From Brevundimonas bacteroides DSM 4726 (GTDB lineage: Bacteria; Pseudomonadota; Alphaproteobacteria; Caulobacterales; Caulobacteraceae): 64,000 nt of DNA. Positions 102 to 4,827 of the stretch are shown one piece after another. The notes beneath the pieces are model-generated. The model was not told the DNA's origin, ran no database searches, and worked only from the letters and a program-made list of their open reading frames with translations. The stretch spans positions 62,001-126,000 of the forward strand of contig NZ_JNIX01000009.1 of NCBI RefSeq assembly GCF_000701445.1. Reading direction: 5' to 3'. The first letter of the stretch is position 1; every line of letters begins with the position of its first letter. A program made the translations under genes and the position numbers.

Positions 102-2279
102 GTGTCCGAGAAACGCGCCCCGGTCCTGCGCCAGTTCGAGCTGATCGAGGCGGTCAAGGCCTATGACCCCACCGCCGACGAGGCCCTGCTCAACCGGGCC
201 TATGTCTATGCGATGAAGATGCATGGCTCGCAGCTGCGGGCCTCTGGCGATCCCTATTTCGCCCATCCGATCCAGGTCGCGGGCATCCTGACCGACTATC
301 GGCTGGACACCGCCACCATCGTCACCGCCCTGCTGCACGACGTGGTCGAGGACACTTCGGCCACCCGCGACGACATCGCCCGCATGTTCGGGGAAGAGGT
401 CGCCGTCCTGGTGGAGGGGGTGACCAAGCTGAGCCGGCTGGAGCTCCAGGCCGAGCACACGCGCCAGGCCGAGAACCTGAGAAAGTTCATCCTGGCCATC
501 AGCCGGGACGTGCGGGTCCTGCTGGTCAAGCTGGCCGACCGGCTGCACAACATGCGCACGCTGCAGTACGTCAAGCCGGAGAAGCGCGAGCGCATCAGTC
601 GAGAGACGCTGGAGGTTTATGCGCCGCTGGGCCGCTCCATCGGCATTCACAGGATCGCGTCGGAGCTGGAGGAGCTGGCCTTCGAGCATCTGAACCCCAC
701 GGCGCGCACCGCGATCGAGCGGCGGCTGGAGGCGCTCAAGCTCGAACACGGCAAGGCGACCGACAAGGTGGCCGCCGAGATCCAGCAGGTCCTGTCGGAA
801 GCCGGCATCCGGGCCCGCGTCTATGGCCGGCAGAAGACGCCCTATTCGATCTGGAGGAAGCTGCAGCGCAAGTCGGTGGGGTTCTCGTCCCTGTCAGACA
901 TCTATGGATTCCGCGTGCTACTGGAGGCCGAGGACGACTGCTATCGCGCCTTGGGGGTTATCCACCGCGCCTGGCCGATGGTGCCCGAGCGGTTCAAGGA
1001 CTTCATCTCCACGCCCAAGTCCAACAACTACCGCAGTCTGCATACGACGGTGGTGGGGCCGGGCGGCCTGCGCATCGAGATGCAGATCCGCACCGAGGCC
1101 ATGGACCGGGTCGCCGAGGACGGGGTGGCGGCGCACTGGGCCTACAAGAACAAGTCGTACGGCTTCGATCAGGAGGCGATGGAGCGGGAAGGGGGCCGCG
1201 ATCCCCTGCAGAACCTGCGTCACCTGGTGCAGGTCATCGAGCACGGCGAGGGTGGCGAGGACTGGGTCGAGCACGCCAAGCTCGAGATGTATCTGGACCA
1301 GGTCTTCGTCTTCACGCCCAAGGGGGCGCTGATCACCCTGCCGCAGGGGGGGATGCCGCTGGACTTCGCCTATGCCGTCCACACCGAGGTCGGCGATACG
1401 GCCGTGGGCGTGAAGATCAACGGCGAGCTGAAGCCGATGCGCACGCGGCTGCAGAACGGCGACGTCGTCGAGATCATCCGCGGCAAGAAGCGCGAGGCGC
1501 CGGCGGACTGGCGTTCGCTGACGGTGACGGGCCGGGCGCGCTCGGCGATCCGGCGTCACATCCGCCATGTGGAGAGGGACGAGTTCCTGAAGCTGGGGCG
1601 CACCACGCTGGAGGCGACCCTGACGCGGGCGGGTAAGGCCCTGTCGGACGTGACGCTGAAGCCCGCGCTGGAGACCCTGGCCCTGGGTTCGGAGGACGAC
1701 CTGTTCGACGCCATCGGGCGGGGGCGCCTGCCAGTCAACAAGGTGGCCGAGACCCTGTTCCCGGCGCTGAAAGGCACACTGGTCAGTGGGGATGAGCGCA
1801 AGAAGATCGCCGACGACAAGGCCCGGCTGTTCGTGCGGGGCGGGGGGCTGACGCCGGGCGTCTCGATCCACTTCGGCGAGTGCTGCACCCCGGTGCCGGG
1901 CGATCGCATCGTCGGCATCCTGGAGCCCGAGAAGGGGCTGACGGTGCACGTCATCGACTGTCAGCGCCTGGCCGACTTCGCCGACGACGACAGCGTCTGG
2001 AACGACCTGCAATGGACGCCGGAGGCGGAGAAGGGGAGCGTCGGCATGGCCCGGTTCCGCGCCACCATCAAGAACGCGCCGGGCGTTCTGGGTCAGGTCG
2101 CCACGGTGATCGGCGAGGCTGGCGGCAACATCCTGAACCTGAAGATGGCCCACCGGCAGCAGGACTTCTTCGACGTCGACCTGGACGTGGAGGTGTCGGA
2201 CGCCAAGCACGCGACGACGATCATGGCGGCGCTGCGGGCCAATCCCAGCGTGGATACGGTGGAGCGGTCGCGGGGGTAA
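102..2279 (+). CDS. spoT: Bifunctional (p)ppGpp synthetase/hydrolase (RelA/SpoT homologue)
   Basis: Long RSH protein of 725 residues that makes and degrades (p)ppGpp in the stringent response. Order of domains: HD hydrolase near the N-terminus (LLHDVVEDT, His79-Asp80, intact), RelA/SpoT synthetase around residues 230-350 (RFKDFI, then NNYRSLH and QIRTEAMD), TGS around 395-455 (VFVFTPKG), and a C-terminal ACT domain from about 645. An intact HD pair together with the RxKD-type synthetase loop, rather than the ExDD loop of monofunctional RelA, argues for both activities. The GTG at 102 is the only plausible start inside the window; the frame stays open to the left edge, so a start upstream of base 1 cannot be excluded. 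It is followed by an SOS-type promoter and a small peptide gene. Confidence 0.95.
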   Translation: MSEKRAPVLRQFELIEAVKAYDPTADEALLNRAYVYAMKMHGSQLRASGDPYFAHPIQVAGILTDYRLDTATIVTALLHDVVEDTSATRDDIARMFGEEVAVLVEGVTKLSRLELQAEHTRQAENLRKFILAISRDVRVLLVKLADRLHNMRTLQYVKPEKRERISRETLEVYAPLGRSIGIHRIASELEELAFEHLNPTARTAIERRLEALKLEHGKATDKVAAEIQQVLSEAGIRARVYGRQKTPYSIWRKLQRKSVGFSSLSDIYGFRVLLEAEDDCYRALGVIHRAWPMVPERFKDFISTPKSNNYRSLHTTVVGPGGLRIEMQIRTEAMDRVAEDGVAAHWAYKNKSYGFDQEAMEREGGRDPLQNLRHLVQVIEHGEGGEDWVEHAKLEMYLDQVFVFTPKGALITLPQGGMPLDFAYAVHTEVGDTAVGVKINGELKPMRTRLQNGDVVEIIRGKKREAPADWRSLTVTGRARSAIRRHIRHVERDEFLKLGRTTLEATLTRAGKALSDVTLKPALETLALGSEDDLFDAIGRGRLPVNKVAETLFPALKGTLVSGDERKKIADDKARLFVRGGGLTPGVSIHFGECCTPVPGDRIVGILEPEKGLTVHVIDCQRLADFADDDSVWNDLQWTPEAEKGSVGMARFRATIKNAPGVLGQVATVIGEAGGNILNLKMAHRQQDFFDVDLDVEVSDAKHATTIMAALRANPSVDTVERSRG

Positions 2280-2306
2280 TTCTGTTGGGTTTCCACGACG
2301 GGACTG

Positions 2307-2346
2307 TTGACGAGAACAAATCCGCAACATAGAACATTCCCGGAAC
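2307..2346 (+). promoter_or_regulatory. Candidate sigma70-type promoter overlapped by a LexA (SOS) box
   Basis: TTGACG at 2307-2312 and TAGAAC at 2330-2335 are separated by 17 bases. Overlapping the -10 is GAAC-N7-GAAC at 2332-2346, which is the reverse-strand form of the alphaproteobacterial LexA operator GTTC-N7-GTTC. A further GAAC lies at 2314. The placement over the -10 fits repression. The downstream gene is a 29-codon membrane peptide starting at 2368. Confidence 0.7.
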
Positions 2347-2367
2347 ACGAAATCTGGGGATGAGGCG

Positions 2368-2457
2368 ATGTCGAGGGTGGTTCGAGAGACGCTGTCGCTG
2401 GCGTCGTGCGGCGGCTTCGTCTGGATGGTATGGACGATCGCTCTGCTGGCGCGATGA
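2368..2457 (+). CDS. SidA-like SOS-induced small membrane peptide (29 aa)
   Basis: A 29-codon frame, ATG to TGA, with a good ribosome site (GGGGATGAGG ending three bases before the ATG). The peptide has a short basic N-terminus (MSRVVRE) and then one hydrophobic segment, about residues 9-28, containing FVWMVWTIALL, so it should be a single-pass inner-membrane peptide. A LexA box overlaps its promoter. In Caulobacter crescentus, SidA is a 29-residue, LexA-controlled inner-membrane inhibitor of division acting on FtsW/FtsN. Matching length, topology and control make this a strong candidate homologue, but I cannot align it to SidA here. The secreted-protein gene at 2484 starts 26 bases downstream and may be co-transcribed. 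Confidence 0.72.
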   Translation: MSRVVRETLSLASCGGFVWMVWTIALLAR

Positions 2458-2483
2458 GGCGCTGATTCAGGCGGGAGGCGGCA

Positions 2484-3416
2484 ATGTCGGGTGTGGTGAC
2501 GGCCCTGGCTCTGGCTCTGATGCAGGCGGCCGGGCCGGCCCAGGCGCAGGACGTCGGGGCGCAGGAACCCGTCGCGCAGCTGCCGGAAGTGGTGGTAGAG
2601 GGGCGGTCTGTGGAAGAGCAGGCGGACGTCTTCATCGATGAGGTCGCCGCGCCGCCCCGGGGGGCGACGGTGGCGAGGTGGAACGAGCGGGTCTGCGTCG
2701 GCGCGGTCGGGCTGCCCGAGACCACCGCCCGCTACCTGATCGACCGCGTTTCGGCCGTGGCCATGTCTGTGGAGCTGGAGCCCGGGGAGCCGGGCTGCGA
2801 CCCGACGGTGATCATCGTCGCCACCCTGGACGGCGGGGCCGTGGCTCAGGGGCTGGTGGAACGGCGACGCAATGTCCTGGCCCCGGGCAATGCGATCCAG
2901 TCCCGGAGCCGGCGTGAGCTCGCCGAGTTCGCCACCGTGGATCGCCCTGTCCGGTGGTGGCACATCAGCACGGCGGTCGATCCAGATTCCGGTCGCAGCG
3001 TCGTGAGACGGCCTGCGGACGACACGACCAATGCATCGATCGAGCAGCTGATCCAGAGCGCCATCCGGGGCTCGAACTCACTGATCACCGCCAGCACCCG
3101 CCAGCATCTGCGTCGCGCGGTCATCATCATCGACTTCGACGAGATCGGCGACGACATCGACTTCGACCAGCTCGCCGACTACGTCGCCTTCGTGGCCCTG
3201 GCGCAGGTGGACCCGGAGGCGGACACTTCGGGCTTCTCCACCATCCTCAACCTGTTCGACGACCCGACGACGCCAGGCCTGACGGCATGGGACAGCGCCT
3301 ACTTGTGGGGCCTCTACAACTCCGACGACACAGCGCGCGGCAATTCCGGCCGAGAAGCCGCGTTGCGCCGCGAGATGCTGCGCGCCCGGGAACGGACGGC
3401 CGAGCCGCCGGAGTGA
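2484..3416 (+). CDS. Conserved hypothetical secreted protein (paralogue A)
   Basis: 310 residues with an N-terminal signal sequence (cleavage probably after AQA near residue 22). I do not recognise a characterised function. Shared features with the gene at 3841-4827 include QLPEVVVEG, a W-x5-CVG motif, a second Cys about 45 residues later, DRPVRWWH, and the strongly conserved stretch [16 protein letters not shown] followed by LFDDP. The two are clearly paralogues in tandem. Ribosome site GGGAGG precedes the ATG. The gene lies just downstream of the SidA-like peptide and could be read from the same LexA-box promoter. A periplasmic or envelope location is inferred from the signal sequence only. 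Confidence 0.8.
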   Translation: MSGVVTALALALMQAAGPAQAQDVGAQEPVAQLPEVVVEGRSVEEQADVFIDEVAAPPRGATVARWNERVCVGAVGLPETTARYLIDRVSAVAMSVELEPGEPGCDPTVIIVATLDGGAVAQGLVERRRNVLAPGNAIQSRSRRELAEFATVDRPVRWWHISTAVDPDSGRSVVRRPADDTTNASIEQLIQSAIRGSNSLITASTRQHLRRAVIIIDFDEIGDDIDFDQLADYVAFVALAQVDPEADTSGFSTILNLFDDPTTPGLTAWDSAYLWGLYNSDDTARGNSGREAALRREMLRARERTAEPPE

Positions 3417-3490: not shown

Positions 3491-3574
3491 CATCCCGCCT
3501 GAGGCATCCCGCCTGAGGCATCCCGCCTGAGGCATCCCGCCTGAGGCATCCCGCCTGAGGCATCCCGCCTGAGG
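3491..3574. repeat. Six perfect copies of a 14-bp tandem repeat
   Basis: The unit CATCCCGCCTGAGG occurs six times head-to-tail without a mismatch, 84 bases in all, and then degenerates into CCGCAACCTGCCTCAAGG. The period is not a multiple of three, so the array is unlikely to be coding. It ends 31 bases before the start codon of a small secreted protein, in its leader or promoter region. Perfect copies suggest recent slippage and likely copy-number variation between strains. Confidence 0.95.
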
Positions 3575-3793: not shown

Positions 3794-3815
3794 GGTGGCA
3801 TCCAAAGATGCCACC
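3794..3815 (+). terminator. Perfect 9-bp hairpin, possible terminator
   Basis: GGTGGCATC, a CAAA loop and GATGCCACC form a perfect 9-bp stem 14 bases after the stop codon of the small cysteine-rich gene. No T-run follows, so termination is uncertain. The ATG at 3808 lies inside the 3' arm, which argues against its use as the start of the next gene. Confidence 0.5.
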
Positions 3816-3840
3816 CAATGCTCATTCAGAGGATTGGTTA

Positions 3841-4827
3841 TTGGTCAGATTGCTAGCTAACTCATTCTGTTTAGTCGGGCTCGCGGTGCTCCTCTCAAGC
3901 TCATATACTGTGCCAGCTTACGGAGCCGTGATCACAAGATCGGCAGGATCAACCCAAGACCTGGCGCAGCAGTTGCCCGATGTCGTCGTAGAAGGAATCC
4001 AGATTGAAGAGCGAGCTGGAGCGTTCATAAGTCAGATTGCTGCCCCATCGAGAGGGGAGTCTCTGGCTCGCTGGCGAGATTCAATCTGTGTTGGGACCGC
4101 TGGGTTTGACGAAGCGGGTGCAACATTCGTCGGCGAGCGCGTGGCTTCTATTGCTTCGGAGATAGGGTTGCAGTCTGAAGGAGAAGGATGCAGCGCCGAC
4201 ATCCTAGTTCTCGCGACGAGCGACGGGACGCGTACGGCTCAAGCAACAGTGGACCTGGAGAGAACCCGTTTTCTTCCAGGTGGCTCGGGCTACTCCCGCA
4301 CACGGCGAGAGTTTCGACAGTTCATCGAAACGGACCGGGCGGTCCGTTGGTGGCACACGACCCTTCCCATAGACAACCGCATGGACCGCCGCGTTCGTCG
4401 CTTGCCGACGGACAACGCCTATGATGACTCGCTGGAAGCCATCAACCGCCTCGATAACGTCCCCCAGACCACCGTCCCCGCCACCCTGATTGCAGCCACC
4501 ACTCGCCAGGACATGTGGGCCGCGACCATCATCGTCGACTTCACGCGCGTGGGCGAGGTCAATTACGACCAACTCGCCGACTACATCGCCTTCGTCGCTC
4601 TGGCCCAGGTCGATCCGGAGGCCGACACGTCCGGCTTTCCGACGGTGCTGAACGTGTTCGACGATCCGGCGTCGGCGCCCGGCCTGACCGACTGGGACCG
4701 CGCCTATCTGCGCGGACTTTATGAGTCCGATGAACGAACGGCGGGCGCCATTGGCCGCGAGGCCGAAATCCGCCGCGAGATGCTGCGCGCCCGCGCGGAC
4801 GGTCAGGCCGAACCTCCCGTCGACTGA
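3841..4827 (+). CDS. Conserved hypothetical secreted protein (paralogue B, mosaic composition)
   Basis: Second member of the tandem family at 2484-3416, sharing [20 protein letters not shown] and [17 protein letters not shown] prefer the TTG at 3841 because CAGAGGA (3827-3833) sits 7 bases upstream and the product then starts directly with a signal sequence. The ATG at 3808 is the alternative, adding 11 residues but lying in a hairpin. Composition changes inside the gene: bases 3841-3960 are 62/120 G+C, whereas 4561-4680 are 78/120, and rare codons such as CTA, TTA and AGA cluster in the first half. This suggests recombination or acquisition of the 5' part. Function unknown. Confidence 0.72.

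What the first reader, a model, noticed from the sequence alone, without database searches (positions are those of the whole stretch)
2307..2457. SOS-controlled SidA-like 29-residue division inhibitor next to spoT
A 29-codon frame with one hydrophobic segment and a good ribosome site is preceded by a promoter whose -10 overlaps GAAC-N7-GAAC, the alphaproteobacterial LexA operator. Caulobacter SidA is a 29-residue, LexA-controlled inner-membrane cell-division inhibitor. Such small genes are usually missed by annotation, and here it sits directly downstream of the stringent-response gene.
Basis: partly seen in the sequence, partly recalled or inferred. Interest (0 to 1): 0.85.

Follow-up and report, generated by a model that had tools for sequence, protein, structure and literature searches.

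The report
Brevundimonas SidA, SOS cell-division inhibitor
The unannotated 29-residue gene looks real: by sequence it is the Brevundimonas version of SidA, the tiny membrane protein that stops Caulobacter cells dividing when their DNA is damaged; in the relatives examined it sits directly in front of the DNA polymerase gene dnaE, and in this genome that neighbour has been swapped.

Summary
The 29-codon frame (2368-2457) has close homologues in 126 of 131 genus genomes. It matches NCBIfam's SidA model at E 2.5e-7 but at 30.5 bits against a 35-bit cut-off, so that model alone would not name it. The promoter carries two tandem LexA-type boxes, GAAC-N7-(G/C)AAC-ATA-GAAC-N7-GAAC, across -35/-10; a relaxed double box is in 79 of 81 promoters. 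In this genome exact boxes precede lexA.

'Next to spoT' is incidental: spoT ends within 1.6 kb upstream in 9 of 80 named loci. The steady neighbour is dnaE, the replicative polymerase gene, downstream and co-directional in 130 of 130 related loci examined, an estimated 18-65 nt away in 20 of 20 cross-genus loci. The window genome is the one exception seen: synteny breaks 5 nt after the sidA stop, dnaE is on another contig, and an orphan gene fills the slot.

Verdict: new member of a known kind, with a sidA-dnaE linkage I did not find in print. LexA binding, induction and FtsW inhibition are inferred.

The parts
2307..2312 (+). -35 hexamer TTGACG
   Evidence: TTGAC-N18-TAGAAC in 70 of 81 upstream regions
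2314..2328 (+). upstream LexA-type box, degenerate here (GAACAAATCCGCAAC); 37 of 81 promoters have both boxes exact
   Evidence: relaxed double box in 79 of 81
2330..2335 (+). -10 hexamer TAGAAC, 17 nt after the -35, overlapping the downstream LexA box
2332..2346 (+). downstream LexA-type box GAACATTCCCGGAAC (reverse complement of the Caulobacter SOS box GTTC-N7-GTTC)
   Evidence: consensus in PMC12700426 and PMC9578287 (passages)
2356..2359 (+). ribosome-binding-site-like GGGG, 8 nt before the ATG
   Evidence: GGGGAT in the last 20 nt before the start in 40 of 80 named relatives
2368..2457 (+). sidA, 29 codons, one predicted membrane segment (about residues 9-27)
102..2279 (+). spoT (RelA/SpoT, HD, TGS and ACT domains; start codon uncertain); upstream neighbour, linkage restricted to a minority of relatives
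2463..2483 (+). synteny break: homology with Brevundimonas sp. AAP58 ends at 2462, where relatives continue towards dnaE
2484..3416 (+). 310-residue protein of a family often multi-copy in Brevundimonas, exported-type N-terminus (by eye), 26 nt after the sidA stop, preceded by GGAGG; possibly read through from the sidA promoter (inference)
   Evidence: (no Pfam match)

Best explanation
This is sidA of a Brevundimonas species. When DNA damage activates RecA and LexA cleaves itself, LexA leaves two tandem boxes that cover the -35/-10 region of the sidA promoter, and the TTGACG-N17-TAGAAC promoter fires. The 29-residue peptide inserts in the inner membrane (N-terminus probably inside, from R3/R6) and holds the FtsW/FtsI/FtsN septal peptidoglycan machine inactive, so division waits for repair. 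Shown here: frame, conservation, operator architecture, homology to SidA by sequence, the shared gene position in relatives, and the presence of lexA, recA and ftsW in the genome. Inferred: LexA binding, damage induction, membrane insertion, FtsW inhibition. In every Caulobacteraceae locus examined except the window's, sidA is the gene directly before dnaE; in this genome a rearrangement (or an assembly error, not excluded) separated it from dnaE and left sidA with its own promoter intact.
For: NF033228 div_inhib_SidA: window peptide E 2.5e-7, 20 of 20 aligned genus members match; of 14 control genomes only Caulobacter vibrioides rings. Identity to the g29 SidA peptides 12-16 of 29, against a maximum of 11 in 20,000 shuffles of one of them. 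Homologues in 126 of 131 genus genomes. Relaxed double box in 79 of 81 promoters of the named set plus window and in 28 of 30 g29 promoters. In the same genome two exact boxes stand before lexA, and others before genes that I recognise by eye from their N-termini as uvrA, ssb, recN and ruvC. Position in front of dnaE in 80 of 80 named, 30 of 30 g29 and 20 of 20 cross-genus loci. lexA, recA, ftsW present. SidA action on FtsW: PMC4211646, passages.
Against: Score below NCBIfam's cut-off (30.5 vs 35 bits; six-frame 28.2). The upstream box is degenerate in the window. Exact boxes are common in the genome (101 hits; 61 of the 100 examined lie inside genes by a crude gene call). recA has only imperfect sites upstream. 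Outside Brevundimonas and g29 the 3-nt spacing of the double box is not constant: 7 of 20 cross-genus promoters fit the loose double pattern, 14 of 20 hold at least one exact box. Ten of 80 named promoters hold no exact box. No expression, binding or phenotype data. The dnaE linkage is lost here.
Confidence: 0.9

Rival explanations
1. An SOS-induced small membrane peptide that descends from SidA but acts on another target (general membrane perturbation, like DinQ-type toxins) in Brevundimonas.
For: Brevundimonas peptides are diverged from Caulobacter SidA (8 of 8 tested score 20.5-34.0 bits, below the cut-off), and no target binding was tested.
Against: Eight columns are invariant and nine more nearly so in 20 aligned Brevundimonas peptides; over 75 distinct sequences W22 is kept in 75, W19 in 73, F17 in 71. 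The F-V-W-M core is shared with the g29 peptides: a specific pattern rather than generic hydrophobicity. Similar operator and the same gene position in relatives.
Confidence: 0.07
2. A non-coding conserved promoter or leader of the next gene, the frame being incidental.
For: The promoter is conserved together with the frame, and in relatives the block lies directly before dnaE.
Against: Codon-position entropy 0.57/0.27/0.84 and dN/dS about 0.33 (protein-based sampling), ATG start in 75 of 75 distinct sequences, frame length 29-31 codons in 80 of 80 named loci, curated family match.
Confidence: 0.02
3. The window copy is a decaying remnant after its separation from dnaE.
For: Loss of dnaE linkage; T23-I24 instead of Q23-V24 of its nearest relatives; an extra out-of-frame ATG at 2360.
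Against: Frame, both promoter hexamers and the downstream box are intact as in the nearest relative; T at position 23 occurs in 15 of 75 distinct sequences, window included.
Confidence: 0.04

Closest known systems
SidA of Caulobacter crescentus/vibrioides (NCBIfam NF033228; PMC4211646, passages; the primary 2011 paper is not held and is known to me by recall)
   Same: 29 residues, one membrane segment, FVWM core, LexA-type operator at the promoter; relatives of both kinds have it in front of dnaE
   Different: 12-16 of 29 residues identical to the unnamed g29 set, which I take to be Caulobacter (inference); below the automatic cut-off; exact rather than degenerate downstream box; 30-31 residues in 38 of 80 named relatives; not next to dnaE in this genome
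DidA of Caulobacter (PMC4211646, passages)
   Same: small single-pass inhibitor that works through the FtsW/I/N complex and is induced by DNA damage
   Different: 71 residues, SOS-independent (DriD), binds FtsN; nothing here links this gene to it
YneA, SosA, SulA (listings and passages)
   Same: SOS-induced division block
   Different: unrelated proteins in other bacteria; SulA acts on FtsZ (recalled)

Membership tests
SidA (NF033228, equivalog) | score at or above the curated cut-off of 35 bits | tested here: not met
   30.5 bits, E 2.5e-7; 8 of 8 Brevundimonas peptides tested 20.5-34.0 bits, two g29 peptides about 72. The model appears tuned to Caulobacter-like sequences (inference).
SidA | about 29 residues with a single inner-membrane segment | tested here: met
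   29 codons; hydropathy 1.79 over residues 9-27. Membrane location itself not tested.
SidA | LexA operator sequence at the promoter | tested here: met
   sequence only; same box before lexA in this genome. Binding not tested.
SidA | homology rather than convergence | tested here: met
   up to 16 of 29 identities against a shuffle maximum of 11; NF033228 at E <= 0.01 in 326 of 390 family genomes, 209 over the cut-off. The genus profile reaches 367 of 390 at E <= 1, which includes weak, possibly chance rows.
SidA | position before dnaE (my criterion from the comparison, not from the literature) | tested here: not met
   dnaE is on another contig in this genome, although the nearest relatives keep the linkage
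SidA | induction by DNA damage through LexA | not testable with these tools
   needs expression data
SidA | binding to FtsW/FtsN and division arrest | not testable with these tools
   ftsW is present; interaction needs bench work

The most novel reading that the evidence does not exclude
sidA is the SOS-controlled leading cistron of a sidA-dnaE unit throughout Caulobacteraceae, so that LexA derepression raises replicative polymerase supply while it blocks division; the window genome is a natural break of that unit, with dnaE freed from SOS control and an orphan gene of exported type placed behind the SOS promoter instead.
Probability: 0.3. Interest if true: 0.6.

Novelty: new member of a known kind. 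Interest (0 to 1): 0.45.

Why it matters
It extends the LexA-controlled FtsW inhibitor SidA to Brevundimonas, where the curated cut-off missed all eight peptides tested, and describes its operator as two tandem boxes. The place in front of dnaE in all related loci examined, from 14 genera by handle, raises a directly testable question: is the replicative polymerase co-transcribed with the division inhibitor under SOS? This genome, where the two are separated, is a ready-made control.

Tried and rejected
spoT linkage as meaningful: rejected, spoT ends within 1.6 kb upstream in 9 of 80 named loci. A second SidA paralogue in some genomes: seven weak or second hits were fetched and read. Six are not SidA-like frames and have no exact box; one (G005:C128, genome 66% complete) is a full second sidA with a promoter and two GAAC-N7-CAAC boxes, duplication or mixed assembly. 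An eighth stretch fetched (G203, a genus genome without a match) was not examined. Spread outside the family: NF033228 matched 2 of 385 class genomes at E <= 0.001, both in the same family; it missed two genus members in the same sample (G004, G032), so absence elsewhere is only as strong as the model. Genus g20 gives weak or no hits (6 of 25 at E <= 0.01, best 4.7e-5); not followed up. Pfam gave no match for the window peptide and only PsaJ at best E 0.054 in 3 of 20 members, taken as chance. RNA folding of three stretches gave no structure beyond shuffles (z 0.59, 0.54, -1.48). Papers: each list one paper holding sidA and dnaE (an SOS review, of which I saw two passages, and a plant-extract paper, listing only); one search lists 15 of 38 papers with dnaE, Caulobacter and LexA (listing only); none that I saw states the linkage. 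PMC12700426 does not contain 'dnaE' in its main text and its gene tables were not seen. The primary SidA paper is not held, so the linkage may be shown there. One search (sidA with Brevundimonas) listed 20 of 36 papers; I looked at passages of one, PMC13384398, which does not treat Brevundimonas SidA in the passages shown.

Full report
What is there. The window is a stretch of a 3.22-Mb, 15-contig genome (G000:C9:62001-126000). The nearest named relative found is Brevundimonas sp. AAP58 (L088; 92% DNA identity over 2,462 bases including spoT and sidA); of the 80 named loci, 62 are titled Brevundimonas by my count, the rest bear broader or doubtful names. At 2368-2457 there is a 29-codon frame with an ATG, a GGGG 8 nt upstream and a hydrophobic segment. 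The promoter TTGACG-N17-TAGAAC (2307-2335) overlaps GAACATTCCCGGAAC (2332-2346).

Is it a gene? A protein search found homologues at E <= 7e-6 in 60 of 61 genus genomes, own genome included. A profile of 20 of them reached E <= 1e-11 in 126 of 131 genus genomes; the five without a strong match are G025 (70% complete), G203, G178, G171 and G200. A DNA search with window 2300-2700 matched 124 of 131 genus genomes, and the listed sidA-locus alignments run between window 2301 and 2469 (capped list): the conserved island is the promoter plus the frame. Within the frame, entropy per codon position is 0.57/0.27/0.84 bits over 75 distinct sequences, and the median dN/dS against 80 named relatives is 0.33. 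Those 80 were found by peptide patterns, which biases this measure toward protein conservation; the DNA search does not share that bias.

Is it SidA? NCBIfam holds a SidA model, NF033228. The window peptide matches at E 2.5e-7 over residues 1-27, and 20 of 20 aligned genus members match. It scores 30.5 bits against a curated cut-off of 35; eight of eight Brevundimonas peptides scored 20.5-34.0, two peptides of the unnamed genus g29 (taken to be Caulobacter, inference) about 72. Over the family, NF033228 finds 326 of 390 genomes at E <= 0.01, 209 over the cut-off, and of 14 named control genomes only Caulobacter vibrioides. Identity of the window peptide to the g29 peptides is 12-16 of 29; 20,000 shuffles of one of them reached at most 11. 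Descent is well supported, while the cut-off would leave it unnamed.

Operator. The Caulobacter SOS box is GTTC-N7-GTTC (PMC12700426 and PMC9578287, passages), the reverse complement of GAAC-N7-GAAC. In 81 upstream regions (80 named loci plus the window) 71 hold an exact box, 37 hold two exact boxes as GAAC-N7-GAAC-N3-GAAC-N7-GAAC, and 79 hold this double box in relaxed form; spacers 4-6 and 8-12 give 0-6. The ten without an exact box read GAAC-N7-CAAC or similar (nine belong to a group around B. diminuta). Of 30 g29 promoters 28 keep the relaxed double box. In the 20 cross-genus loci (13 handle genera, one further g29 locus among them) 14 hold an exact box but only 7 the loose double pattern with 3 nt between the boxes, so the spacing varies outside these two genera. 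In the window the upper box lies in the -35/-10 spacer and the lower one covers the -10 and the probable start site, a layout expected of a tight repressor site (inference). In the same genome two exact boxes precede lexA, and others precede genes that I recognise by eye as uvrA, ssb, recN and ruvC. Against: 61 of the 100 exact boxes examined fall inside genes called by a crude method, and recA has only imperfect sites.

Neighbourhood. spoT is the upstream neighbour in the window but ends within 1.6 kb upstream in only 9 of 80 named loci (7 within 350 nt). The steady neighbour is dnaE (DNA polymerase III alpha, named by eye and by its match to the relatives): downstream and on the same strand in 80 of 80 named, 30 of 30 g29 and 20 of 20 cross-genus loci. 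The gap is 19-47 nt in the g29 set (nearest start codon) and 18-65 nt in the cross-genus set (start extrapolated from an alignment), operon-like. In Brevundimonas it is longer and variable: the start of a conserved dnaE motif lies 56-475 nt after the sidA stop in 75 of 80 loci; in five the motif was not found, and in 12 of the 75 no start codon was found. In the window genome dnaE lies on contig C10 (97% identical over 1,153 residues), 158 nt after the end of an upstream open frame and with no exact box nearby. Against AAP58, homology to the window stops at 2462 and resumes at the dnaE start in C10. None of the listed relatives carries the window's junction. A 310-residue protein starts 26 nt after the sidA stop; its family is found in 53 of 61 genus genomes, often in several copies, and in 3 of 40 order genomes. 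An assembly error at this junction cannot be excluded with these data.

Mechanism and verdict. The best-supported account is a LexA-repressed division inhibitor that acts on FtsW/FtsI/FtsN, as shown for Caulobacter SidA (PMC4211646, passages). Homology and operator are shown by sequence; induction, membrane insertion and target are inferred. The bolder reading, that sidA leads a sidA-dnaE transcription unit and so links division arrest with replicase supply under SOS, fits the spacing in most genera sampled outside Brevundimonas but has no expression evidence. Against it: dnaE must be expressed without damage, which argues for a further promoter; the gap is long in many Brevundimonas; and the main text of one Caulobacter SOS-regulon paper does not mention dnaE (its tables were not seen). 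I found no paper that states the linkage, but the primary SidA paper is not held.

Noticed in passing
L088-L197 and L288-L307 (sidA loci); window 2458-2483: sidA is followed by dnaE in 130 of 130 related loci examined, an estimated 18-65 nt away in the 50 loci outside the named Brevundimonas set, but not in the window genome.
   Followed up: partly
window 2484-3416 and 3808-4827: Two tandem paralogues (48% identical, no Pfam match) of a family that is often multi-copy and clustered in Brevundimonas (53 of 61 genus genomes) and rare outside (3 of 40 order genomes).
   Followed up: partly
window 3491-3574: Six head-to-tail copies of the 14-bp unit CATCCCGCCTGAGG between the two paralogues.
   Followed up: no
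window 2360-2362: An out-of-frame ATG 8 nt before the sidA start; 4 of 80 named relatives have an ATG in the last 12 nt, 28 of 80 read GATAAG there. It could reduce translation.
   Followed up: no
L273 (G005:C128:2500-4500): A second full sidA with its own promoter and two degenerate boxes in a 66% complete genome; duplication or mixed assembly.
   Followed up: partly
L131, L132, L134-L138, L140, L141 upstream of sidA: A group around B. diminuta lacks any exact box; both boxes end in CAAC or similar instead of GAAC, perhaps a weaker operator.
   Followed up: no
L168-L177 and others, about 64 nt before sidA: 17 of 30 g29 promoters carry an exact GAAC-N7-GAAC further upstream than the degenerate double box.
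   Followed up: no
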